A stretch of 52,030 nt of DNA. Source: Planctomycetia bacterium TMED53. Its GTDB lineage: Bacteria > Planctomycetota > UBA8108 > UBA1146. Positions 1,136 through 40,034 of this stretch are shown here, piece after piece (the stretch's first letter is position 1; each line of letters opens with the position of its first letter). The stretch spans positions 1 through 52,030 of the forward strand of contig NHDG01000056.1 in the NCBI GenBank assembly GCA_002167285.1. Reading direction: 5' to 3'. The notes below the pieces were generated by a model that ran no database searches, was not told where the DNA came from, and saw only the letters and a program-made list of their open reading frames with translations. The translations under genes were made by a program, and so were the position numbers.

Positions 1136-1200
1136 ATCATGGAAAGTTTGTGTGGATCCTGCGGGCTTTACTTTGTTCCGGTTTGGGAGACACTGTCGCC

Positions 1201-1251
1201 ATGAAAAACAAACTGCATCCCTATCTTGCTGAATTCCTCGGCTCTCTCGGC
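1201..1251 (+). pseudogene. Truncated aquaporin (MIP family) 5' remnant
   Basis: Translation MKNKLHPYLAEFLGSLG closely matches the start of the intact aquaporin at 9365 (MKISLHPYLAEFLGTFG); hand-aligned 36/51 nt identical, and similarity extends into the 5' leader (CACTGTCGCCATG vs GACTGTCACCCATG). Similarity ends at the stop codon of the minus-strand ABC gene (1254). Confidence 0.75.
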
Positions 1252-1253
1252 GA

Positions 1254-4151
1254 TCAGGTTGATTGCCTGGCGAGCAATCCGGCGAAGACTCCATCGGCGG
1301 CGGCAAGCTCGGCGTAGGTACCCTTCTCAACGACCCGACCCTTATCGAGAACGTAGATGCAATTCGCTTCGCGAATCGAGCTGAGGCGGTGGGCGATGAC
1401 GACGCGCGTCACATTCCTGCGATTGAGACTCTCGTTGACGATGTTTTGCGCCTTGTTATCGAGAGCGCTGGTGGCCTCATCGAGGAACAGGACTTTTGGC
1501 CGACGGATCAGGGCACGGGCGATCAACAACCTTTGCCTTTGTCCGCCAGAGAGATTGCTGCCCCCTTCACTGACCACGGTGTGAAGCTGCATCGGCATGT
1601 CGTAGATATCATCGGCGATCCCCGCTTCCTCGACCGCTTCCCAGGCTTCTTCCATGGTGTAAACGGAACCGACGGTGATATTTTCAAAGATGGTCCCCGC
1701 ACTGATATGCCCCGATTGCAACACCACCCCCAACTGGCGGCGAACGGCGGTGGAATCGACGGAGTCGATGTTTTGGCCGTCGAAACGGATCTCGCCACTT
1801 TCAGGAGTTTCAAAGCCGAGCATCAAACGCAGCAGGGTGGACTTTCCGCAGCCGGAAGTGCCGGTCAATGCGATCATCTCGCCAGGCTTGGCATGGATGG
1901 AAACATCTTCGAGGATCTTGGGCCCGTCTGCTGAGTAACGGAAATGAATCCGGGAGAGTTCGATCTCGCCTTTGATTTTCCCGGGATCGATGCTGGCGGA
2001 GGTCGTCTCCATCTCGGCTTCGAGGAGTGGCTTCATGCGTTCTGCGAGAACGGTGGTATCGAGGAAATCGACGATGGTGCTGCTCAGTGTCAATGCCCCA
2101 CCGAGGAAGACGCCGAGGGCGGTGTTGAAAGCCAGGAAGATACCGATCGAAAGAGCCGGTGCACCGGCAGCGGGCTCGGTGATCAACGGCATCGCCAACA
2201 TGAAGAGGGCCAAGGTACTGAGCATGGGAATCGTGCGATTGAAGAGGGCCAGGTTATCGACGATGACCTGAACTCTGTTGGAAAGGTGCAACTGTTTGGC
2301 GATGCGATTCATCCACAGGGCGAAGGCGCGCCTTTCGGCACCGGCGACCCGGAGCTTGCTAACAGCACTGATCAACTGGACCTCGAAGCCGAAGAGCTCC
2401 CCCTCCTCTTCCATCAATTTGCGGGCATGCCTTCGGATGAGAACTCCGCCGAGGAAGGTGACGATGGCCACTATGGTGGCGATGGCGATGGCCACCAAGG
2501 CGAGTTTGGCATTGTAGATAAAGAGCAGTATCACATTGAGCAGCGCCATCAGTGAGGTCAACAGTGTCAGCATCGTCGGCCCGCTGAACTCTTGGCTGAT
2601 GGCGTGGGCGGCGGAGATCCGTTGCAGGAGATCCCCGGTGGAGTAGTTCGAAAAGAAGGATGTTTTGAGCCGTAGAACCCGATCCCAAATCGCCGATTGG
2701 GATTCGAAATCGGTGTTCACTGAAAGGCGCAGTGAGACGAAGGATTGGAAGATGGAAAGGAGAGTCATTCCTAGGGTCACCGCCAACAGTGCCCCACCCA
2801 GCTCCAGGAGCAACCGAGAGTTGGAGTTGGGGATGGCGCTATCGAGGATGATGGCCATCGCTTGGGGGAAAAGCATTCCCATCACTGTCAGCACCACCGC
2901 AGCGGTGGCGAAAGCGGTGATATCTGGAAACTTGTTCTTCAAGCTGAAGGCGACCAGATCGACTGGCTTGTTTTTGTCTTCCCCCAAGGTACGGATCAGA
3001 ACCAGCGCATGCCTTTTGAGACGCTGCTGGGTGGACCCATTGATGAGAGTCTTCGAGTCATCGCGGGGGTCGTGAATGTGATAACGCCCTTTGTTGTCGA
3101 GGAGGATGGCAACCGGGCGATCATCCTCTTGCAGGTAGCCGACCAAGGGGCCGACATCCCGCTTCCACCAATCACCTCGGAAGACGACCTTGCGATACTG
3201 AATGCGGGAGGCGCGGGTGATCGCTTCGGCAGGATCACTCAACTTTTCCAAATCGGTAGATTCTGCCATCGGCAAGATGGGGATCCCCTTGGCATTGCCG
3301 ACCGTCTTCATCACCGAGTAGAGATCTTCGCCGGGGTTTTGCAAAGCCACCTGCGGGTTGAGCACGGAAGCCAGGGTTGCCAAAGCGTGCTGGGATCCCT
3401 TTTCTTCGATGGTTTCACGCCGCTTGACCCGTTGTAAGTTTCTTTCGCCCTCTTCGGAGCGGGTTGCATCGCGACGCTTTTGGATGAGGTCATTGAGTTG
3501 CTGTAGAGCATCGAGTGCAGGGTTTTGGTCGATGGCGGCTGGATCAGCGATTTCGAATGCGAGTTCTTCGGTGGCCTCGATCCAGCAGCCGCGTGGGAGC
3601 AGCAGTGGTGAATCTTCACTGCTGAGAGCCATTTCGCCACTGAGGAGTCCTGCCCCTGTCGAGATGTGGATCCAACAACTTTCCTGATGCGGCGTCGTCA
3701 CCATGTGCCCCGGCGAGATGGAAGCGCTCGTATCGCTTTGCAGACGATCGCTATTGGCAGGCGCACCTCCGGCCTGCAAAAGCGGGCTGAGTTTCGATGC
3801 CCATGAACCGACGACATCGGCGATCGATTGTTGCAGCGCTGCTGCAACGAGATCGAGTTTATCGAGGGGCAGTTCGAGGATTTGCATCGAGTCATGGGAG
3901 CTGACCATGCAGCAATACTCACTGGTTGCGGCGTGGTGGGAGATGGAGAAGAGGCTATCGCCAAGTTGGATCTCCCCCAACGGCTTTCGGCGGCCGGATG
4001 ATTGATCATCGATGACGTCGGTGGCCACCAACTCGCCGTGACCTTCGATCACCAACCAGAATTTATCCCGATCGCGGAGAAGCAGAGATTGATGGCCTGA
4101 CGCATGGTGGATCTTGCCGTGCGACTCGAGGGATTCAAATCGCCGACTCAT
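1254..4151 (-). CDS. NHLP/NHLM-type peptide export ABC transporter, permease/ATPase with N-terminal regulatory-like domain (ABC2 type)
   Basis: 965 aa; Walker A GTSGCGKSTLLRL, signature NLSGGQRQRLLIARAL, Walker B VLFLDEATSAL; long N-terminal cNMP-like region and TM domain; coupled (ATGA overlap) to an upstream C39 ABC transporter. Confidence 0.85.
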   Translation of the reverse strand: MSRRFESLESHGKIHHASGHQSLLLRDRDKFWLVIEGHGELVATDVIDDQSSGRRKPLGEIQLGDSLFSISHHAATSEYCCMVSSHDSMQILELPLDKLDLVAAALQQSIADVVGSWASKLSPLLQAGGAPANSDRLQSDTSASISPGHMVTTPHQESCWIHISTGAGLLSGEMALSSEDSPLLLPRGCWIEATEELAFEIADPAAIDQNPALDALQQLNDLIQKRRDATRSEEGERNLQRVKRRETIEEKGSQHALATLASVLNPQVALQNPGEDLYSVMKTVGNAKGIPILPMAESTDLEKLSDPAEAITRASRIQYRKVVFRGDWWKRDVGPLVGYLQEDDRPVAILLDNKGRYHIHDPRDDSKTLINGSTQQRLKRHALVLIRTLGEDKNKPVDLVAFSLKNKFPDITAFATAAVVLTVMGMLFPQAMAIILDSAIPNSNSRLLLELGGALLAVTLGMTLLSIFQSFVSLRLSVNTDFESQSAIWDRVLRLKTSFFSNYSTGDLLQRISAAHAISQEFSGPTMLTLLTSLMALLNVILLFIYNAKLALVAIAIATIVAIVTFLGGVLIRRHARKLMEEEGELFGFEVQLISAVSKLRVAGAERRAFALWMNRIAKQLHLSNRVQVIVDNLALFNRTIPMLSTLALFMLAMPLITEPAAGAPALSIGIFLAFNTALGVFLGGALTLSSTIVDFLDTTVLAERMKPLLEAEMETTSASIDPGKIKGEIELSRIHFRYSADGPKILEDVSIHAKPGEMIALTGTSGCGKSTLLRLMLGFETPESGEIRFDGQNIDSVDSTAVRRQLGVVLQSGHISAGTIFENITVGSVYTMEEAWEAVEEAGIADDIYDMPMQLHTVVSEGGSNLSGGQRQRLLIARALIRRPKVLFLDEATSALDNKAQNIVNESLNRRNVTRVVIAHRLSSIREANCIYVLDKGRVVEKGTYAELAAADGVFAGLLARQST

Positions 4152-6337
4152 GATGCATCCGCCTCTGAAAATTCATCATCCAGCTTCAGCAGTTGGGCGT
4201 AGGAGCCGTCCTTTTCCCACAGTTCATCATGGTTGCCGCGCTCGACTACTTTGCCGTACTCAAGCACGATGATCTCTGTGCAATCACGGATGGTGCTCAA
4301 GCGGTGAGAAACGAAAATTGAGGAGCAGCCACGCATCCGCATCCGATCGAGAACGACCCGCTCCGTTTCGGTATCGAGGGCGCTGGTGGCTTCATCGAGG
4401 ATCAGGATCGTCGGATTTGAGACCAGGGTTCTAGCGATTTCGAGGCGCTGCCTTTGGCCACCACTGAGGTTGTTTCCGCCTTCGAGTAGCTCGCAATCGA
4501 AGCCGCCCTGGAGACCGACGACCGTATCGAGGATCGCCGCATCTTCGCAGGCGTGAATGATGTCGTCATCGGGGACGGTCGAATCCCACAGGGTTAGATT
4601 TTCTTTGACGGTGCCACTGAAGAGTTGAATCTCTTGGCTGATGAAGCTGAAGGAGTTGACAAAGAGATTACGCGGTAGCTCGTCCATCGGAATGTCATCA
4701 AAGTAGATGGTGCCACTCCACGGCTTGAGTTCTCCGGAGATCAGTTTCGCTAAGGTTGATTTTCCGGAGCCACTGCCACCGACGAGGGCGATGCGGTCCC
4801 CGGGCTTGATGTGGATGTTGAGATCTTCCAGCAGTGGCGGCTCGAGGACGTTGTAACCAAAGGTGACATTCTCTAAACGGATGTCCCCCTTGAGGAAAAC
4901 CTTCTCTTCATCGGGGTGACTTTCGGGGGCTCCGCTTTTTGGATCTTCGAAGGGATACTTGAGGACGTCATCGACTCGCTCCAAGTCACCGCGCATCTCT
5001 TGAATCTCAGAACCGAGATCGAGGAGGCTGTTGACCGGAGCGAGAAAGCTCGCCATCAACGATTGGAATGCGACGAGCATACCGATGGTCAATGCTCCAT
5101 CGATGACACGGAAGCCACCGAGAATGATGACCAGGAGTGTCGCCAAGGTGCTCAGGAAGCTTGGGATGGCGACGAGGACGGTATTGCTGACTTGCAGGTT
5201 TTGTTGGGCGTTAACCGCCTTCGAGTAGTAACCGGACCACTTTTCATAAAAGCCCGATTCGAGGCCACTCGCCTTGATTGTTTCCATGCCCTGTAAACCC
5301 GCCATCGCTGTTCCATGGGCCTTGCCAAATTCTTGCAGAACTCGCATCGACGCTTCGATTCGACTTTCGGAAATCCACCTCAAGATCATGAAGTTGAGCA
5401 CCGCCACACAGAGTCCGACCGCTGTCAGCAGGACGTCGTAGTAGAGCATCACGGCGAGGTACAACCCGGCCATCACCACATCGATAGCGGTTTGTGCCAA
5501 GCGCCCAGAGATATTGTTGGCGATATCCTGGTTCAGTTGGCTTCGATTGGCGACTTCACCGGCGAAGCGTTGCACGTAGAACTCGTTGGGAAGTTGCAAA
5601 AGGTGCCAGAAAAATTGGCTCGACAAACGAATCGTAAGATTGAGGCGCAATCGCCTCAGTGAATTCATCTGCAGATACTTGAGACCGAGATTCAAAATGA
5701 TGGCAAAGAACATCGAAAAGATGATGGGCTTGGCCCAATTCGTTCTGTTCTCCAAAATGATCTCATCGAGGAAGACCTGCATCAGGACCGGAAACAAGAT
5801 TCCAGGAATGACCAATAGGAACCCGATGAAGATGCAGAAAAGGATCGGCAGCTTAGCCCCGATCAATCGCTCCGAGATCGCCAGCAGCAAGCTGGGCTTG
5901 CGGCCACCTTTTTGAAACTCGTCGGTGGGTTTCATCGCCAATGCGACTCCGGTGAAGCTTCTTTCAAATTCATCCATCGGGATGACCCGGTGCCCCATCG
6001 CCGGGTCGTTGATGTACGCGTGATCGCCTTTGAAGCCTTCAAGGACGACGAAGTGGTTGAAATCCCAGAAGAGGATGCAAGGTAACTCTAGTGATCGAAG
6101 GGAGGCTGCATCCGACTTGATCCCGTGTGCCTCCATGCCGTATCGACGAGCGGCGCGCAGGACATTGGCGGCTTTACTTCCATCTCTGGAAACTCCGCAC
6201 TCTGCGCGCAATTTTGCCAACGGTTCGATACGGCCGTAGTAACCCAAGACCATCGCCAGCGAGGCGGCACCACATTCGACCGCTTCCATCTGCAGGACCG
6301 TCGGGGTTTTGACCCGTTTATTGGAGGGCTTGGCCAT
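4148..6337 (-). CDS. NHLP-type peptide export ABC transporter with N-terminal C39 peptidase domain
   Basis: 729 aa; C39 motifs QMEAVECGAASLAMVLGYYG (catalytic Cys), FNHFVVLEG (His), NDPAMG (Asp); TM domain; GGSGSGKSTLAKL, LSGGQRQRLEIARTL. Confidence 0.92.
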   Translation of the reverse strand: MAKPSNKRVKTPTVLQMEAVECGAASLAMVLGYYGRIEPLAKLRAECGVSRDGSKAANVLRAARRYGMEAHGIKSDAASLRSLELPCILFWDFNHFVVLEGFKGDHAYINDPAMGHRVIPMDEFERSFTGVALAMKPTDEFQKGGRKPSLLLAISERLIGAKLPILFCIFIGFLLVIPGILFPVLMQVFLDEIILENRTNWAKPIIFSMFFAIILNLGLKYLQMNSLRRLRLNLTIRLSSQFFWHLLQLPNEFYVQRFAGEVANRSQLNQDIANNISGRLAQTAIDVVMAGLYLAVMLYYDVLLTAVGLCVAVLNFMILRWISESRIEASMRVLQEFGKAHGTAMAGLQGMETIKASGLESGFYEKWSGYYSKAVNAQQNLQVSNTVLVAIPSFLSTLATLLVIILGGFRVIDGALTIGMLVAFQSLMASFLAPVNSLLDLGSEIQEMRGDLERVDDVLKYPFEDPKSGAPESHPDEEKVFLKGDIRLENVTFGYNVLEPPLLEDLNIHIKPGDRIALVGGSGSGKSTLAKLISGELKPWSGTIYFDDIPMDELPRNLFVNSFSFISQEIQLFSGTVKENLTLWDSTVPDDDIIHACEDAAILDTVVGLQGGFDCELLEGGNNLSGGQRQRLEIARTLVSNPTILILDEATSALDTETERVVLDRMRMRGCSSIFVSHRLSTIRDCTEIIVLEYGKVVERGNHDELWEKDGSYAQLLKLDDEFSEADAS

Positions 6338-6343
6338 GGAGGA

Positions 6344-7786
6344 TCAGTTCCCCCCCAGCTCTTTGAGGAAGGGAAGCAAAAAGGTGATCGGCTTTCGATA
6401 TTCGGTGGTCGCATCGATAGCGACCGTCATACCGGAGGTGACCTTGATTTCTGGCCCCTTACCTGAAGACCACTCGTAACCACTGCTCGTTTCATCGGAG
6501 CGTTTGAGGTTGCTGCGAACTTCAATCATCGATCCGCCGGTGCCCAAGCTTTGGGCAAGTTCCTTGTTGCCGATGGTGGCGGCGATGGAATCGGTCGAAC
6601 GCGGAATTGAAGAAACGCTCGTCACCTGACCGAGGATGCTGCCGAAGCGTTCCTTTTTGACGGTGGTCGGAGTGACACGGGTAGGCATGCCTTCGGCGAC
6701 TTTTTTACCGTCTTTGACTGGGAAGTAAGCGACGACTACGAGGGCATCTGTGCCCGCGTTGTTTTCCATCGATCCGATCTGCTGACCCGGGGCCAAAACC
6801 TGGCCGGGGGCTATGTTCAGTTCGATGACCTTGCCCGAATAAGGAGCTTTGATCACCGATTGATGACTCAAGTTTTGAGTCAGCCGCTGCACTCGGCCTT
6901 CGGCTTCTTTGATCAACATGTTTTGTTGTGAGTTCTCAGTCAGCTCTGCTTGGTCGAGTCGCGCAATCTGAACATCGAGTTCTTCCAGCTTGCGGTTCAG
7001 TTCTTCGATGTCGTCAAGACGTGTTTGGTGCTCGGCGAGGAACTGCAGTTTTTGATAATCGAGATCGTGTTTTTTCACTTGGAGTTCAGAGAGGGAGACT
7101 TTGTTGGTCAACAACTCCTGACGGGTGTCGTGAAGATCTTCATCGTACTCAGAGAAGATTTCATCTTTAGCTAAGTCTTCGTAGTTGGCGAGTTTTCCCT
7201 TTAGGTACTCCCCAAGTGATAACAAATCCTGTTCCAAGGTGTTGAGCTGTTCGACCTGCTTCTTCAGGTAAAGTTCTTTTTCGTCATGTCTGAGAGTCGC
7301 CAGGTCGGTGTGGATTTGAATCTGTTTTTGGTACCAGGCTTTTTTGGTTTCGATAAACGATTTTTCTGAACTGAGGGTTTGTAGGCGAAGCTCTTCATTG
7401 AGTTTGGTTTTGGCTTTGAGTTCTGCGAGCATCGCCTCTTCGACTGCCAGCTGCCCTTCCAGTTCTGGTTGGTATACCTCTGCGATGACCTGGTCGTATT
7501 GAACAGATTCACCTGGGCCTACCTTCAGCTTGAGCAGCTGACCTTGGGAGTGGCTGTGCAGGGGGACCACTTTTCCGGGGAAAACCATGATCCCGTTGGC
7601 TTTGACATTGACCGGTATTTGGCCAAAGAAGCACCAGAGGATGAAACAAGCCATCCCCAGCCCAACGACAAATACGGGCAGCCAATTGCGGCGCGGTAAC
7701 ACCTCGAGCATGGTGTCGAGCTGCTCTGGCGTGGAGATATGCTCCAGTGCTTTCTTTTGAAACAAGGAGGGCTTTTCGGCGGACAA
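6344..7786 (-). CDS. HlyD-family secretion adaptor of the NHLP export system
   Basis: 480 aa; single N-terminal TM, biotinyl-lipoyl-like half motif (VPLHSHSQGQLLKLKVGPGESVQYDQVIAEVYQPE), coiled-coil region, then APYSGKVIELNIAPGQVLAPGQ. Confidence 0.85.
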   Translation of the reverse strand: MSAEKPSLFQKKALEHISTPEQLDTMLEVLPRRNWLPVFVVGLGMACFILWCFFGQIPVNVKANGIMVFPGKVVPLHSHSQGQLLKLKVGPGESVQYDQVIAEVYQPELEGQLAVEEAMLAELKAKTKLNEELRLQTLSSEKSFIETKKAWYQKQIQIHTDLATLRHDEKELYLKKQVEQLNTLEQDLLSLGEYLKGKLANYEDLAKDEIFSEYDEDLHDTRQELLTNKVSLSELQVKKHDLDYQKLQFLAEHQTRLDDIEELNRKLEELDVQIARLDQAELTENSQQNMLIKEAEGRVQRLTQNLSHQSVIKAPYSGKVIELNIAPGQVLAPGQQIGSMENNAGTDALVVVAYFPVKDGKKVAEGMPTRVTPTTVKKERFGSILGQVTSVSSIPRSTDSIAATIGNKELAQSLGTGGSMIEVRSNLKRSDETSSGYEWSSGKGPEIKVTSGMTVAIDATTEYRKPITFLLPFLKELGGN

Positions 7787-7820: not shown

Positions 7821-8372
7821 TCAATGTTTTCGGGATCGCTCGATCAGGTATTCGAATCGGCGACCGGCCAACGACACCGCTTCCAAAACATCCGGATCGA
7901 CGATGCTGAGATCGTCATCCTCGTTTTGTGCTTCGGCAGCTTTGATATTCCCTGCTGTGAGTGTGGTTTGAGTCAGATGGATCAAACGTTGGGCTAGGCA
8001 AACGCCGATCGCTTTGTAAAAGCGACTGCCAAAGTTTGCATCGGTTCTCAACTTTGCAGATAGATCCCTGCGGGAAACTTTCAAAACATTTGTTTGCTCG
8101 AGGGCGATCAGGGTTACGGCGGGAGGTCTCGAATCAAGGAATGAAACTTCACCGACGATTTCGCCGGGGTAGAGGGTCGACAGGGATTTCTCAGGATTGG
8201 CGAGGGTGGTGACCTTGAGAGAGCCTTCAAGGATGATGCCGAGAGAGTCGAGGTGAACCCCCTCTTCGATGAGAGTCTCCCCCTCCTGGAGAGCTTGGGT
8301 CTTTCCAACCCTGGCGAACCAATCGATATCCAGGTCTTCAAGGACTCCTAGGATGATCAATGAATTACGCAT
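7821..8372 (-). CDS. Cyclic nucleotide-binding (Crp-like) domain protein, no obvious HTH
   Basis: 183 aa; GETLIEEGVHLDSLGIILEGSLKVTTLANPEKSLSTLYPGEIVGEVSFLDSRPPAVTLIALEQTNVLKVSRRDL matches the cNMP-binding beta-roll; no C-terminal winged helix seen. Confidence 0.8.
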   Translation of the reverse strand: MRNSLIILGVLEDLDIDWFARVGKTQALQEGETLIEEGVHLDSLGIILEGSLKVTTLANPEKSLSTLYPGEIVGEVSFLDSRPPAVTLIALEQTNVLKVSRRDLSAKLRTDANFGSRFYKAIGVCLAQRLIHLTQTTLTAGNIKAAEAQNEDDDLSIVDPDVLEAVSLAGRRFEYLIERSRKH

Positions 8373-8444
8373 CGCTGTTAAACCTGTTTCTACTATTCGA
8401 CATTGACAATAGCGTCTGTTAAGAATCTATTTTGCACATAAAAA

Positions 8445-8489
8445 AAACCGATTGCCCCAACTAAATTAAGTGGTTGAGGCAATCGGTTT
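8445..8489 (-). terminator. Rho-independent terminator downstream of the small double-glycine peptide gene
   Basis: 12-bp perfect stem AAACCGATTGCC / GGCAATCGGTTT with an A-run at the plus-strand left side (U-tract on the minus transcript). Confidence 0.75.
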
Positions 8490-8543
8490 GAAGTTTGTAG
8501 TGCTTCTCTTGGTCTGGTTCGTTAAACCAGGCCTGAGTTACGA

Positions 8544-8741
8544 CTACTTGCCCTTGGTATTGATCTTGGTCGGATCGGGCTTGGGATCAAAAGCGTCTCC
8601 ACCACCGGGCATTGGCTTGTGATCGTCTCTGGCGCTGGCGGCAGTCTTCTTAGCTTTGAGCATTTCTTCTTTAGACATGCCTTTGGCTCCGCCTGCAACA
8701 CCCTCAAGATCTGCGTCGGAAATTTTGTTCTCGTCACTCAT
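8544..8741 (-). CDS. Candidate double-glycine-leader precursor peptide exported by the NHLP system
   Basis: MSDENKISDADLEGVAGG|AKGMSKEEMLKAKKTAASARDDHKPMPGGGDAFDPKPDPTKINTKGK; leader resembles 'LSDxELExVAGG' double-glycine leaders; start chosen at ATG 8741 with RBS-like AGAAGGTGG 8 nt upstream. Confidence 0.75.
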   Translation of the reverse strand: MSDENKISDADLEGVAGGAKGMSKEEMLKAKKTAASARDDHKPMPGGGDAFDPKPDPTKINTKGK

Positions 8742-9364
8742 GGTTTGACCCACCTTCTATCTTGGAGACCCAATAAACGGGGACACAGCATTCGCTGCAA
8801 ACTATTGAAAACGGCGTTGTTGGATCTCCGCCTTCCAACGCCAACTTCCTTCACTGTCAATAAACTCCTAAAAAGCTAGGAAATCAATGACCCGAACTTC
8901 AGGTCCTCACAGTCGATTTCATAAAATCTGTATCAGATCCTATCGATCGATCAGACACCCCAATCTTACATTTTAGGAACTTCCGGGTAAAGGTCTCAGC
9001 TTGAGAGATTAAATATATGAGATTATTACAGTTATGAAATTTCAATGAATGATTCCCTCGTTGAGGGAGCCTTTAAGGGGTTGGGTTTTCCCGATATATC
9101 CCCCAATTTTCCAACATATGCGTTACAGGAACTCAAGAAGGTGCATCCGATAAATTTGAACCTTCAGGTCGGGAATTTGACGTCAGTTTATGCACGACGC
9201 GGTGATAGCAGTGACGGGTTTGAAGTTGTAAGTCGGAGGATTGATCGAAATGAGTTTCTGCCATCGACCTTGCTTTTACCTCCGAATCGATTTGCGATAA
9301 CGGAGTGATTTCAAGTTGATCTTTACTCGTTTGCAATTTTGGAAATTTAGAGAGACTGTCACCC

Positions 9365-10036
9365 ATGAAAATCTCGCTTCACCCCTACCTCGCGGAGTTT
9401 CTCGGGACTTTCGGTCTGGTGGTCAGTGCGACCAGTGCCGGAACTCTGGCCAGCCTTGGTTATTCCATCAGTCCGCTGGGAGATGGGCTCTTCTCAGGGG
9501 TGGCGGTGCTTTTGATGATTCTCCTCTTTGGCCCTGCTTCTGGGGCGCATATCAATCCGGCGGTATCGATAGCGATGGTGCGTGCTGGAAAGTTATCGAA
9601 GTCAAAGCTGCCCGGTTACCTGATTGCCCAGTTTTTCGGGGCTGTGCTGGCGAGTGTGGTGATGCGGCAGATTTTTGCTGAGGCCCCCTCTATTGGTGCT
9701 CATCAGCCGGGAAGCTTGGGGTTGATCGGCAGCTTGTGGATGGAAGTATTGCTGACCGCCATTCTCGTCGGCGTGATCTTCTGGATCATCGATCAGGATT
9801 GGGCGAAGGGGCCGATCCCCGCCGTGGTCATCGGTCTAACGGTCACGGTGGAGGTGGCCCTTGCCGGATCCTTGAGCGGGGCTTCGATGAATCCGGCGCG
9901 CAGTTTTGGTCCGGCGCTGGTTTCCGGCGAGCTGGCCTCGCTGTGGATCTACTTTGTGGGTCCATTTGCCGGTGGTTTGGTGGCGGTCACGCTGTGTCGG
10001 CTGCTGCGTCCGGGCCCCTGTTGCCAGACCTGCTGA
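9365..10036 (+). CDS. Aquaporin / MIP-family channel
   Basis: Two NPA motifs (GAHINPAVSIAMV and GASMNPARSFGPALVSGE), six TM-like segments. Confidence 0.93.
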   Translation: MKISLHPYLAEFLGTFGLVVSATSAGTLASLGYSISPLGDGLFSGVAVLLMILLFGPASGAHINPAVSIAMVRAGKLSKSKLPGYLIAQFFGAVLASVVMRQIFAEAPSIGAHQPGSLGLIGSLWMEVLLTAILVGVIFWIIDQDWAKGPIPAVVIGLTVTVEVALAGSLSGASMNPARSFGPALVSGELASLWIYFVGPFAGGLVAVTLCRLLRPGPCCQTC

Positions 10037-13003: not shown

Positions 13004-14617
13004 TTATCTCAATGGGCCTGGTTGCAGCAGGTCCTCCAGTTGAATGCCGTAATCCTTCAAGATCGTCCCGGTGGCATTGCGATAGCCGGTGATCGCTTTG
13101 CGCACGCGGATCTGCGCTTGCAGTTCCTGGACTTGGGCGGAGAGCAAACTGTTCTGCACCTGCAAGACTTGGTAGGCGGTGGAGACTCCTGCCTCGAGGC
13201 GACGGGTTTCCCCATCGAGCTCTTCGCGGCGCAAGCGTGTCGCTGCCTGGGTTGTTTCGACGGCCTGGCGTGCGCTCTCCAGTTCTCGGACCGCGCGGGT
13301 GACTTCTAGAATGATGCCATTGGAGAGCTGGTCCTTGTTGAGCTGAGCCAGCCTCAAATCTTCCCGGGCTTGCATTTGGCGGTTTTTGGCGGCCCTTTGC
13401 CCCAGCGGGATCTGCAAGTTGAGCCCGGCGCTCCAAGAGTAGTCGTCCCCCACATTGGACCAGGATTCGCTGAAACTGAGGCCATTCCCCGGTTGGCTGA
13501 AGCTGCCGGTCAAATCGAGGGTGGGCAGCAAATCGTTCTCTCTGACCCTCAGCAGGTCTTTGCTGCTAGCGATCTGTAGATCACTTTGGGCCAGCTCCAA
13601 CCGACGGACGAGCGCCTCTTCGACGACCGCCTCCATCTCAGGTGTGAACTGAGTCGGATTGAGTGCAGAAGTGGGAATGATCTCCACATCCTTGAGCAGA
13701 GACGGAGCTCCTACCGAGCGGCGAAATTCAGGGGCATTGATGCTGTCGAGAAGGATGTCCTGGAGATCACGCAGGATGTTGAGGGCGGCGATGATGCTGG
13801 ATTGCTGGGTGGCCACATTTGCCTCGGCGCTGATGACGTCGAGTCGTGTTCCCAATTGTACTTCGAGGCGACGACGATTGAGGTCTAAAAGCTCCTGTGC
13901 TTCTTGCAGTGCACTCCTCTGAACCTCGACGTTGCGGCGCGCGTAGACGAGATCCCAGTAGCTGCTTTCAACGCTGGCCACCGTAGTTTCCATCGATCTC
14001 ACAGTCGCCAACTTTGAAGACTCAGCATTGCGCAAAGCTACGCGTAGATTGGTTTCGGTAATTTCCTTGCCGCGGCCGCGAAGAAGAGGCTGGGTCAGTG
14101 ATAACTCGACCCCACTGCGATAGTTCAAAGGTAGGAAGAAAGGACTGCTGGAGGTGGTTTCAGAGCGGTTGCCATTGAGGCGGAATTGCCAACTGGTGCC
14201 GTATCGCATCAAGCCGGAAAGCCCCATGAAATAGCTGTCATTGGAGCGATTTGAGGTCTCTCCGACTTCGGCTCCATCGATGATGCTGGTCGACGTTGTT
14301 TCTGATTCGCTGAGGGAAAACCCGGTGCTGAAAAGGGGGTCGAATGCCGCTTCCGCGATGAGCGGATCGAGGTAGGCCCTACCCTGAGAAACGCGCTGAA
14401 CTTGTAAGCCTAGGTTGTGTTCGAGGGCGAGTTGGATCGCCTCGGAGAGGCTCAGTTTACGAATCTCTCCCGATTCAAAGATGCGCTCTTCATCGCTGAC
14501 GGGATTATTTTTCATCTCCAATGCGTGGGTGGCTGGAGTGATCAGCAGCACCACAACGGCAAAGAGAAACGCAGTGGAAAAGGGCACTGCAGAGTTGCGC
14601 AGAGATCGTGCAAACAT
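13004..14617 (-). CDS. TolC-family outer membrane efflux protein
   Basis: LSLSEAIQLALEHNLGLQVQRVSQ, repeated coiled-coil regions, LDVISAEANVATQQSSIIAALN, final AYQVLQVQNSLLSAQVQELQAQIRVRKAITGYRNATGTIL. Confidence 0.9.
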   Translation of the reverse strand: MFARSLRNSAVPFSTAFLFAVVVLLITPATHALEMKNNPVSDEERIFESGEIRKLSLSEAIQLALEHNLGLQVQRVSQGRAYLDPLIAEAAFDPLFSTGFSLSESETTSTSIIDGAEVGETSNRSNDSYFMGLSGLMRYGTSWQFRLNGNRSETTSSSPFFLPLNYRSGVELSLTQPLLRGRGKEITETNLRVALRNAESSKLATVRSMETTVASVESSYWDLVYARRNVEVQRSALQEAQELLDLNRRRLEVQLGTRLDVISAEANVATQQSSIIAALNILRDLQDILLDSINAPEFRRSVGAPSLLKDVEIIPTSALNPTQFTPEMEAVVEEALVRRLELAQSDLQIASSKDLLRVRENDLLPTLDLTGSFSQPGNGLSFSESWSNVGDDYSWSAGLNLQIPLGQRAAKNRQMQAREDLRLAQLNKDQLSNGIILEVTRAVRELESARQAVETTQAATRLRREELDGETRRLEAGVSTAYQVLQVQNSLLSAQVQELQAQIRVRKAITGYRNATGTILKDYGIQLEDLLQPGPLR

Positions 14618-38348: not shown

Positions 38349-40034
38349 ATGAGTTCGGATACTGGGCTGGACCATCTAGGTTCTGAAGAAAACTCCCGGG
38401 GAAACTGCTTCAGTAAGGAGCCGCTTTCCCGGGAGATTCTTGATTGGCTCCGCGTGAACTCTGTACTTTCGATTGCATGGGATGAGTGTAAATCTAGGGG
38501 CAAATCCCCTGAGTCAATATTGCAGCTGGATGCTCGTGTTGTTGAATACCACAAATCAGAGATCATTTTGCGAAAAGGAGATTACGGCGGGTCGGTGCTG
38601 ATCCCGTTAAATGGATCTGTTCGTGTGAATCTTGAAGAGTCAGGTGAAAAGCATTTTGCCCGCAAAGAGTTATCTAAAAGACGCAGTTGGTTCTCTGCGT
38701 TGGGTCAGTTGTTCAGAAGGAAATCTCCTGTAGAGACTTTGCTGACTAATTCAGGCACAGCGAATGGCTACAACTCAAGAGTCTCTGTTCCCAGGCTTCA
38801 CATCGATCTTGAGGCATACATCCAAAAAAATCTTACGCGAAGAATCGAAATCGGCGACATATGCGGGGAGATAGCGGCTCTGAGAAGAAGTCCAAGAACA
38901 GCATCCATATTTGCAGAAACCGACTGCAGTTTACTTGAGATTCGTTGGCAGGGCGTGCGGGAGATCTTGAAGAACTCAAAAGAGTTCAGCTGGTATTTAG
39001 AAGATTTGATTGGCGACCGTCGACATCAAATCTTTTCTGGAATGAATGCTTTCAAAGATTTGACAGAAGGAACACAGCGTGCGCTTACTTCGAAGAGTAT
39101 CTTTGAACGATGGGGTTCTGAGCACTGGAATCGAAACTTTAGAAATATTCTCCAATCCCATTCTTCAATGATCGACCGGGAGCACCTGATATTGCCTCAG
39201 GGGCATCATGTCGATGGCCTATACGTATTATTGAGTGGCTTCGCAAGGGTGACCCATTTGGAGGCAGGAGAAGAGAAAACAATCGGCTACTTGAGGCCAG
39301 GTGATATTTATGGATTCAAAGAGTTGATGCAATTTGTTCAAAGTGGAAAAAGATCCCCCGCGCTGCGAAGTATCCGCGCTGTCGGAGCTATCGATTTAGT
39401 GGTGATCCCCGTTGACGATTTCGTTGAGCATGTGTTGCCAGAGTTAAAAGAAAAAGACATCAAGGCTTTGAGGTCAGAAAGGGGTTTGATCTCAACCGAG
39501 ATGCTGAACTTCTTCCTCGATCATAGAATCATCAATGGTAATCAGACGATGTTGATCGATATGAATCGGTGTACCGATTGCGATGATTGTGTGAAAGCTT
39601 GTGCGGTGACCCATGACGGAAACCCTAGGTTTATTAGAGAAGGTTATCGGCATGCCAGTTTGATGGTGGCAACTGCTTGTATGCACTGTATCGACCCTGT
39701 GTGCCTCGTTGGTTGCCCAACTGGTGCGATTCACCGAGAACCGGAATCAGGAAGTGTGGTCATCACGCGATCCGAGTGTATCGGTTGTGCGTCTTGTGTT
39801 GAATCTTGTCCATACAACAATATTCGAACAGTAGAAGTGCACGATGCAAATGGAGAGCCTGTCATCGATTTTGAAACAGGAAAGCCCGTCTTGAAGGCGA
39901 CGAAGTGCGACCTTTGCGTTGATCAGCCATCTGGGCCAGCTTGTGTGAATGCTTGTCCCCATGATGCACTTCACCGCGTGAACTTTTCCGATGTATCTGA
40001 GCTCTCAAAGGTGATCGGGAGAATCACAGGATGA
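38349..40034 (+). CDS. Fusion of two cyclic-nucleotide-binding-like domains with a four-[4Fe-4S] ferredoxin (DmsB/NrfC-like) domain
   Basis: Two beta-roll regions (VEYHKSEIILRKGDYGGSVLIPLNGSVRV...; LPQGHHVDGLYVLLSGFARVTHLEAGEEKTIGYLRPGDIYGFKELM) followed by CTDCDDCVKAC, CMHCIDPVCLVGC, CIGCASCVESC, CDLCVDQPSGPACVNACP. Confidence 0.88.
   Translation: MSSDTGLDHLGSEENSRGNCFSKEPLSREILDWLRVNSVLSIAWDECKSRGKSPESILQLDARVVEYHKSEIILRKGDYGGSVLIPLNGSVRVNLEESGEKHFARKELSKRRSWFSALGQLFRRKSPVETLLTNSGTANGYNSRVSVPRLHIDLEAYIQKNLTRRIEIGDICGEIAALRRSPRTASIFAETDCSLLEIRWQGVREILKNSKEFSWYLEDLIGDRRHQIFSGMNAFKDLTEGTQRALTSKSIFERWGSEHWNRNFRNILQSHSSMIDREHLILPQGHHVDGLYVLLSGFARVTHLEAGEEKTIGYLRPGDIYGFKELMQFVQSGKRSPALRSIRAVGAIDLVVIPVDDFVEHVLPELKEKDIKALRSERGLISTEMLNFFLDHRIINGNQTMLIDMNRCTDCDDCVKACAVTHDGNPRFIREGYRHASLMVATACMHCIDPVCLVGCPTGAIHREPESGSVVITRSECIGCASCVESCPYNNIRTVEVHDANGEPVIDFETGKPVLKATKCDLCVDQPSGPACVNACPHDALHRVNFSDVSELSKVIGRITG

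What the first reader, a model, noticed from the sequence alone, without database searches (positions are those of the whole stretch)
8544..8741. Minimal NHLP-exported peptide: double-glycine leader, no Cys in core, no modifying enzyme nearby
The 65-aa product has a typical leader ending VAGG and a charged, Pro/Gly/Lys/Asp-rich core with no Cys or Trp. Canonical lanthionine or Cys-heterocycle chemistry is therefore excluded for this core. The neighbouring C39 transporter, second ABC protein, HlyD adaptor and cNMP protein form a dedicated export line with no LanM, YcaO or radical-SAM gene in the window. It may export an unmodified signalling, adhesion or toxin peptide.
Basis: partly seen in the sequence, partly recalled or inferred. 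Interest (0 to 1): 0.7.

Follow-up and report, generated by a model that had tools for sequence, protein, structure and literature searches.

The report
Planctomycete double-glycine peptide export family
A small gene in an uncultured planctomycete makes a peptide with a cut-and-export tag beside its own export machine, and the same tag is fused to many unrelated short peptides elsewhere in that genome and its relatives, with none of the three best-known peptide-modifying enzyme types found in this genome.

Summary
The small ORF is real. It lies on the minus strand (8544-8741, 65 aa) as first gene of an NHLM-type export operon: precursor, terminator, cNMP-domain protein, HlyD, C39-ABC, second ABC. 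A leader profile built without this genus finds it at E 1.4e-11; the next window ORF is chance level. It sits at the same place in 7 of 7 loci where the upstream DNA is held, always followed by a terminator hairpin. The transporters are NHLM members, but the precursor is not an NHLP peptide: it has a short class-II-type double-glycine leader.

41 ORFs with this leader occur in nine family genomes, three of them in this genome, and in 0 of 6 family genomes without the operon. Near-identical leaders carry unrelated cores, mostly Cys-free (33 of 38), hydrophilic and Lys/Gly/Asp/Pro-rich; some carry Flp-pilin-like or MopE-like pieces. No LanC-like or YcaO protein occurs in 17 genomes searched, and no SPASM radical-SAM in this one.

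Best reading: one exporter releasing a repertoire of unmodified extracellular peptides; function undetermined.

The parts
8544..8741 (-). precursor peptide gene, 65 aa; leader residues 1-18 (MSDENKISDADLEGVAGG), predicted mature peptide residues 19-65 (47 aa, computed 4982.7 Da, net charge +4)
   Evidence: syntenic orthologues in 6 other genomes
8440..8489 (-). intrinsic terminator (17-bp stem and U run) between precursor and export genes
   Evidence: -27.5 kcal/mol, z -7.3, 0 of 200 shuffles as stable; region 8430-8500; an equivalent hairpin in 7 of 7 loci examined. The consensus scanner did not list it, since it allows loops of 3-8 only
7821..8372 (-). cNMP-binding-domain protein, TIGR03896-like, 183 aa
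   Evidence: PF00027 E 5.7e-16; TIGR03896 125.9 bits, below cut-off
6344..7786 (-). HlyD-type adaptor, TIGR03794, 480 aa
   Evidence: over cut-off
4148..6337 (-). C39 peptidase/ABC exporter, TIGR03796, 729 aa; Cys22, His95 and Asp111 align with the C39 residues of PCAT1
   Evidence: residue numbers counted by hand; catalytic roles recalled
1254..4151 (-). second ABC permease/ATPase without C39 domain, TIGR03797, 965 aa
13004..14617 (-). TolC-type outer membrane efflux protein, possible outer-membrane partner (inferred; not in the operon)
   Evidence: PF02321 E 3.9e-45; kept beyond the sulfatase gene in G001 and G002

Best explanation
The ORF encodes one substrate of an NHLM-type, C39-containing type I exporter that serves a dispersed family of double-glycine precursors. 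Inferred steps: the precursor is made in excess over the export proteins (a terminator right behind it lets only part of transcription through); the short acidic leader docks on the C39 domain of the TIGR03796 ABC protein and is cut after Gly18; the 47-aa, Lys/Pro/Asp-rich, mostly disordered core leaves through the ABC pair, HlyD and a TolC-type channel without lanthionine, azole or SPASM-radical-SAM modification. The other precursors, carried elsewhere with the same leader but unrelated cores, use the same exporter. As most likely role I commit to extracellular or cell-surface peptides (matrix, adhesion or surface-charge function) rather than pore-forming bacteriocins, because no core has a hydrophobic stretch. 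Shown: gene reality, synteny, terminator, leader family, co-occurrence with the exporter, core composition, absence of three enzyme classes. Inferred: cleavage, export, absence of any modification, and the role (about 0.4 for surface/matrix).
For: Gene reality: leave-genus-out leader HMM E 1.4e-11; precursor upstream of the cNMP gene in 7 of 7 loci with that DNA held (G000, G001, G002, G007, G009, G011, G014), while in G003, G013 and G015 the contig ends first. Purifying selection on the leader: non-synonymous proportion 0-0.18, at or below the synonymous proportion in all 12 pairs; cores change faster (0.09-0.39). Terminator in 7 of 7 with different stem sequences. Export module over NCBIfam cut-offs; C39 Cys/His/Asp aligned to PCAT1 4ry2. 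One exporter, many substrates: leader ORFs (41 in all) in 9 of 10 family genomes that have the module or a fragment of it, 0 of 6 without (one-sided hypergeometric 8.7e-4, not corrected for kinship). No LanC-like or YcaO in 17 of 17 genomes, no SPASM in G000, with controls ringing. Cores: 33 of 38 without Cys, median GRAVY -1.28, 0 of 38 with an 11-residue window above 1.6. AlphaFold model of the precursor: mean pLDDT 60.9, two short helices, no globular fold.
Against: No expression, processing or secretion data. The assembly is 83% complete, so an enzyme could be missing, though G001 (95%) and G013 (92%) also lack all three classes. Only three enzyme classes were sought genome-wide; ATP-grasp ligases, non-SPASM radical SAM enzymes, dioxygenases and methyltransferases were not. 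A SAM methyltransferase lies beside the tandem orphan precursors in G009, G013 and G014, so some substrates may be modified. G003 has the exporter but no leader ORF was found (its operon is cut by a contig end). The surface/matrix role rests only on composition and analogy.
Confidence: 0.7

Rival explanations
1. Antagonism: the leader family is an arsenal of unmodified class II-like bacteriocins or microcins whose cores diversify against competitors.
For: Double-glycine leaders; sub-threshold leader matches to class II bacteriocin models (NF038167 in 12 of 39 members, TIGR03949 in 11 of 39); up to 7 precursors per genome; cores evolve fast, with pN above pS in 4 of 12 pairs.
Against: No core has a membrane-inserting hydrophobic stretch (0 of 38); no immunity gene lies between precursor and exporter in the window operon.
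Confidence: 0.25
2. Modified natural product: the cores are altered by an unlinked enzyme of a class not searched here (for example an ATP-grasp ligase linking Lys/Thr to Asp/Glu, or a methyltransferase) before export.
For: Cores are rich in Lys, Asp, Thr and Ser; NHLM exporters elsewhere go with modified peptides (PMC2887384 passages); a methyltransferase lies beside orphan precursors in G009, G013 and G014.
Against: No enzyme gene was recognised in the operon of the window or in its syntenic copies; no LanC or YcaO in 17 genomes and no SPASM in G000; core sequence is poorly conserved apart from a frequent C-terminal Gly-Lys (13 of 38).
Confidence: 0.2
3. Signalling: the operon peptide is a diffusible signal and the cNMP-domain protein is part of its response.
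For: A cNMP-domain protein is kept in the operon; double-glycine peptides act as signals in Gram-positive bacteria (PMC7595303, start of abstract in the listing).
Against: No receptor kinase gene is part of the operon; a signal needs a conserved core, but operon cores are only moderately alike; many unrelated cores share the leader.
Confidence: 0.1
4. Spurious ORF: an untranslated frame upstream of the export genes.
For: The ORF is short, modelled as disordered, and Pfam recognises nothing in it.
Against: Leader HMM, synteny, codon-level constraint and terminator.
Confidence: 0.02

Closest known systems
NHLM/NHLP export systems (TIGR03794/03796/03797; Haft et al. 2010, PMC2887384, passages read)
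   Same: Same three-gene exporter over curated cut-offs; [quoted passage not shown]
   Different: The precursor lacks the NHase-like or Nif11-like leader and has a short (18-34 aa) class-II-type leader; no modifying enzyme of the three searched classes in G000; a terminator-separated first gene; leader plus unrelated cores.
EbfG1-4 with PteB in Synechococcus elongatus (PMC4997328 abstract; PMC9981879 passages)
   Same: Small double-glycine proteins secreted with the help of a C39-peptidase transporter; no modification step is mentioned in what I read; several per genome.
   Different: EbfG form one four-gene operon and EbfG1-3 are amyloid-prone with hydrophobic hotspots; the planctomycete cores are hydrophilic, Lys/Pro-rich and scattered. 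Homology of the peptides was not tested.
Prochlorosins (ProcA/SyncA; PMC10783134, passages)
   Same: Conserved leader ending in GG, non-conserved cores, precursors distributed across the genome.
   Different: Prochlorosins carry a Nif11-type leader and are modified by a LanM-type enzyme; here no LanC-like protein was found in 17 genomes and 33 of 38 cores have no Cys.
Cyanobacterial bacteriocin clusters, including the CTB family (NF038167; PMC3140520, abstract and passages)
   Same: C39 ABC, HlyD and double-glycine precursors, mostly without lanthionine enzymes.
   Different: This precursor scores 12.5 bits against NF038167 (cut-off 32); cyanobacterial cores are described as rich in Gly, Cys, Ser and Thr.

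Membership tests
NHLM export module | TIGR03796 C39-ABC, TIGR03797 ABC and TIGR03794 HlyD over curated cut-offs, adjacent | tested here: met
   1034.8/853.3, 838.4/709.4 and 308.4/156.2 bits; adjacent genes 1254-7786
C39 peptidase exporters (PCAT/AMS) | Catalytic Cys, His and Asp of the C39 domain present | tested here: met
   Cys22, His95 and Asp111 align with the CGAA, HFVV and DP-G motifs of PCAT1 4ry2; activity not tested, roles recalled
NHLP precursors (TIGR03793) | NHase alpha-like leader | tested here: not met
   no match for the window peptide (E <= 1); 1 of 39 family members at E 0.0017
Nif11-type precursors (TIGR03798) | Nif11-like leader | tested here: not met
   no match for the window peptide; 2 of 39 members, best E 8.2e-5
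CTB family bacteriocin (NF038167) | score over curated cut-off | tested here: not met
   12.5 bits against 32
TIGR03896 transport-associated cNMP protein | score over curated cut-off | tested here: not met
   125.9 against 161.05 bits; lacks the first 138 model positions; 0 of 148 genomes reach the cut-off
Lanthipeptide / TOMM / SPASM-type RiPP | LanC-like, YcaO or SPASM radical SAM enzyme in the genome | tested here: not met
   none in G000; assembly 83% complete; SPASM matches in 7 of 17 genomes (5 over cut-off), among them G008, which has no operon
Membrane-active class II bacteriocin or microcin | amphiphilic or hydrophobic core and a linked immunity gene | tested here: not met
   0 of 38 cores with an 11-residue hydropathy window above 1.6; no extra gene recognised in the operon; killing not testable here
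EbfG-like biofilm matrix proteins | secreted and needed for biofilm | not testable with these tools
   needs genetics in a cultured relative

The most novel reading that the evidence does not exclude
The leader is a roaming secretion tag. In this planctomycete family a leader cassette of about 54-102 bp recombines onto unrelated coding fragments, including a copy of the mature N-terminus of Flp pilins and a MopE-type metal-binding motif, and so builds a fast-changing repertoire of unmodified exported peptides served by a single exporter.
Probability: 0.3. Interest if true: 0.75.

Novelty: new variant of a known kind. Interest (0 to 1): 0.5.

Why it matters
NHLM exporters are usually read as the sign of a modified peptide. 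This family is a case where the same exporter goes with short-leader, Cys-poor precursors and with none of three main modifying enzyme classes in the genome, so transporter-based mining would misname the product. It also gives a clean test of core swapping: within one genome, leaders 81-92% identical carry cores about as alike as shuffled sequence. Representatives of each core group are short enough to order as synthetic peptides, so matrix, toxin and signal readings are directly testable.

Tried and rejected
One search covered the plus-strand translation by mistake; its hit is only that frame matching itself and was dropped. G000:C38 (E 0.56) was read and dropped as chance: no leader seen. 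An Hcp-like reading of the G014:C152 core was my recollection; Pfam at E <= 5 did not support it, so it is not claimed. A shared neighbour gene in 8 orphan loci turned out to be chaining through a repeated dockerin-like C-terminal stretch and was rejected. The simple terminator scan missed the hairpin because its loop is too long. A plasmid search with one Flp-like orphan found nothing. G013:C17 (281-aa open frame, no Met) and G014:C50:5564 (masked bases before the leader) are counted among the 41 ORFs but not among the 38 complete ones. G007:C156 failed the automatic Met/GG rule and is also outside the 38; its sequence was trimmed by hand for alignment A3 only, which is why A3 has 39 rows. 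G118:C26 (E 1.1e-3, other family) is outside the 41.

Not in print: paper searches listed, by title and start of abstract, no paper on this precursor family or on double-glycine peptides of Planctomycetota; only open-licence PMC papers are held.

Full report
WHAT IS THERE. On the minus strand the window holds, in reading order, a 65-aa ORF (8741 to 8544), a hairpin with a U run, a 183-aa cNMP-domain protein, an HlyD adaptor, a C39-ABC protein and a second ABC protein whose start overlaps the stop of the first. The three transport proteins pass NCBIfam's curated cut-offs for the NHLM export module; the cNMP protein is like TIGR03896 but below its cut-off. The window is contig C85 of an unnamed 2.98-Mb draft genome, 83% complete. 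Named relatives of the C39 protein at 78-88% identity (7 loci) are metagenome bins: four are titled Planctomycetota or Planctomycetia, one Bacillota and two just bacterium.

IS IT MORE THAN CHANCE. A leader HMM made from 19 leaders of other genera gives the ORF E 1.4e-11 in this window, with nothing else above 4.1 bits and a best of 9.3 bits in 40 reshuffled windows. In the seven genomes where the DNA upstream of the cNMP gene is held (G000, G001, G002, G007, G009, G011, G014) the precursor is there; in G003, G013 and G015 the contig ends first. In G001 and G002 the flanking aquaporin, sulfatase and outer-membrane genes are kept too. Leaders are under purifying selection (non-synonymous proportion 0-0.18, never above the synonymous one, 12 pairs); cores change faster, with the non-synonymous proportion above the synonymous one in 4 of 12 pairs. 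A strong terminator-like hairpin follows the precursor in 7 of 7 loci although its sequence differs between genera, which suits a precursor made in excess of its exporter.

NOT A DEDICATED LINE. The same leader occurs elsewhere. In G000 two more precursors lie on contig C67, with no transport gene seen beside them but with a tRNA-Ala close by. Over the family, 41 leader ORFs were found: 3, 2, 1, 5, 7, 5, 7, 7 and 4 in G000, G001, G002, G007, G009, G011, G013, G014 and G015. Ten of the 16 family genomes have the module or a fragment of it (TIGR03796 in nine; cNMP and HlyD genes at a contig end in G009); leaders at E <= 0.01 occur in 9 of these 10 and in 0 of the 6 others. The exception is G003, whose operon is cut. 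The chance of this split is 8.7e-4 if genomes were independent, which they are not. Outside the family, among the other genomes of the 148 searched, only G118 has a leader at E <= 0.01, although nine of them (G118 included) carry a TIGR03796 protein. Among 33 leader hits on contigs other than the operon's, 16 lie within 1 kb of a contig end against 5.7 expected, so the counts are probably too low.

LEADER KEPT, CORE SWAPPED. Over 77 within-genome pairs of complete precursors the mean identity is 0.55 for leaders, 0.26 for cores and 0.23 for shuffled cores; the 9 pairs with leaders at least 80% identical have cores at 0.12-0.29. At DNA level two G013 leaders, on C74 and C75, are 95% identical while upstream and core are 59% and 52%. 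Two precursors carry a second leader-like GG motif inside (G015:C77, G007:C71). Core groups by eye: Lys-rich helix plus Pro/Lys tail ending in GK (the operon type), an (N/H)-x-(S/T)-(S/T)-(R/K)-SN type, an ATAIEYGLIA type, and singletons.

ODD CORES. In G009, G011 and G013 the core begins with ATAIEYGLIA(A/S)L directly after GG, matching the Flp pilin family at positions 7-19 (E 9.2e-5 at best, 22.6 bits, below the cut-off of 32.2); G014 has ATAIKYGLIAS. No Flp gene over the cut-off was found in 17 genomes. The same 12-mer also stands inside 795-1016-aa open frames in G001 and G005, with different codons; I cannot explain this. One G014 core matches the MopE metal-binding motif (E 1.3e-5, 25.8 bits, cut-off 27).

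NO KNOWN MODIFYING ENZYME. LanC-like 0 of 17 genomes; YcaO 0 of 17; SPASM radical SAM 7 of 17 (5 over cut-off), but not G000, G001, G002, G013 or G015, and present in operon-free G008. The control genomes rang for each family. Other enzyme classes were not searched. In other planctomycete families the same transporter stands near a long open frame that looks LanM-like by eye (G096), and Nif11-type leaders with a radical-SAM-like frame stand near the cNMP and HlyD genes in G090 (not confirmed by HMM), so the enzyme-free pairing looks special to this family.

HOW IT PROBABLY WORKS. Shown: the parts and their linkage. Inferred: the leader docks on the C39 domain, whose Cys22, His95 and Asp111 align with those of PCAT1, is cut after Gly18, and the 47-aa core leaves through the ABC pair, HlyD and a TolC-type channel (an OEP gene lies at 13004-14617). 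The core is hydrophilic (GRAVY -1.29, charge +4) and modelled with one short helix (residues 24-37) and no fold (mean pLDDT 60.9). None of 38 cores has a membrane-inserting stretch. I therefore favour a surface or matrix role (about 0.4) over toxin (0.25), hidden modification (0.2) and signal (0.1); no functional evidence exists.

COMPARISON. It works like the NHLM systems of Haft et al. (PMC2887384, passages read), with many scattered precursors per exporter, but the precursor fails the NHLP and Nif11 tests. Leader and core behaviour is like prochlorosins (PMC10783134, passages) without the LanM. The nearest described double-glycine proteins with a non-antibiotic role that I found are EbfG1-4 of Synechococcus (PMC4997328 abstract; PMC9981879 passages), which are partly amyloid-prone, unlike these. 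Verdict: new variant of a known kind.

Noticed in passing
window 1187-1250 (+) and 9349-9424 (+): A degenerate copy of the first codons of the aquaporin gene (MKNKLHPYLAEFLGSLG) overlaps the 3' end of the second ABC gene, while the full aquaporin gene starts at 9365: the export operon lies between two direct copies. Local score 31 against a background maximum of 18. Not seen in G002.
   Followed up: partly
L187 and L188 (G001:C3, G005:C18): The Flp-pilin-like 12-mer ATAIEYGLIAAL stands inside large secreted-looking proteins (795-1016-aa open frames) with codons different from those in the precursors.
   Followed up: partly
L109 7112-7966 (+), L107 4556-5410 (-), L111 2854-3702 (-): A SAM-dependent methyltransferase gene follows the tandem orphan precursors in G009, G014 and G013; it is not among the ORFs listed in the matching G011 locus L110 (Pfam run on the G009 copy only).
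   Followed up: partly
window 38349-40031 (+): Protein with two cNMP-binding stretches fused to 4Fe-4S ferredoxin domains, near cytochrome genes; separate from the export operon.
   Followed up: no
L193-L197, L052-L056 (G043, G118, G133, G033, G053, G031, G097, G090, G096, G045): In other planctomycete families NHLM operons are varied: Nif11-like long-leader precursors in G033 and G090, a LanM-looking frame beside the operon in G096, and another short Cys-free precursor candidate (MPKNRPINDEDLKKVSGAG...) in G031.
   Followed up: partly
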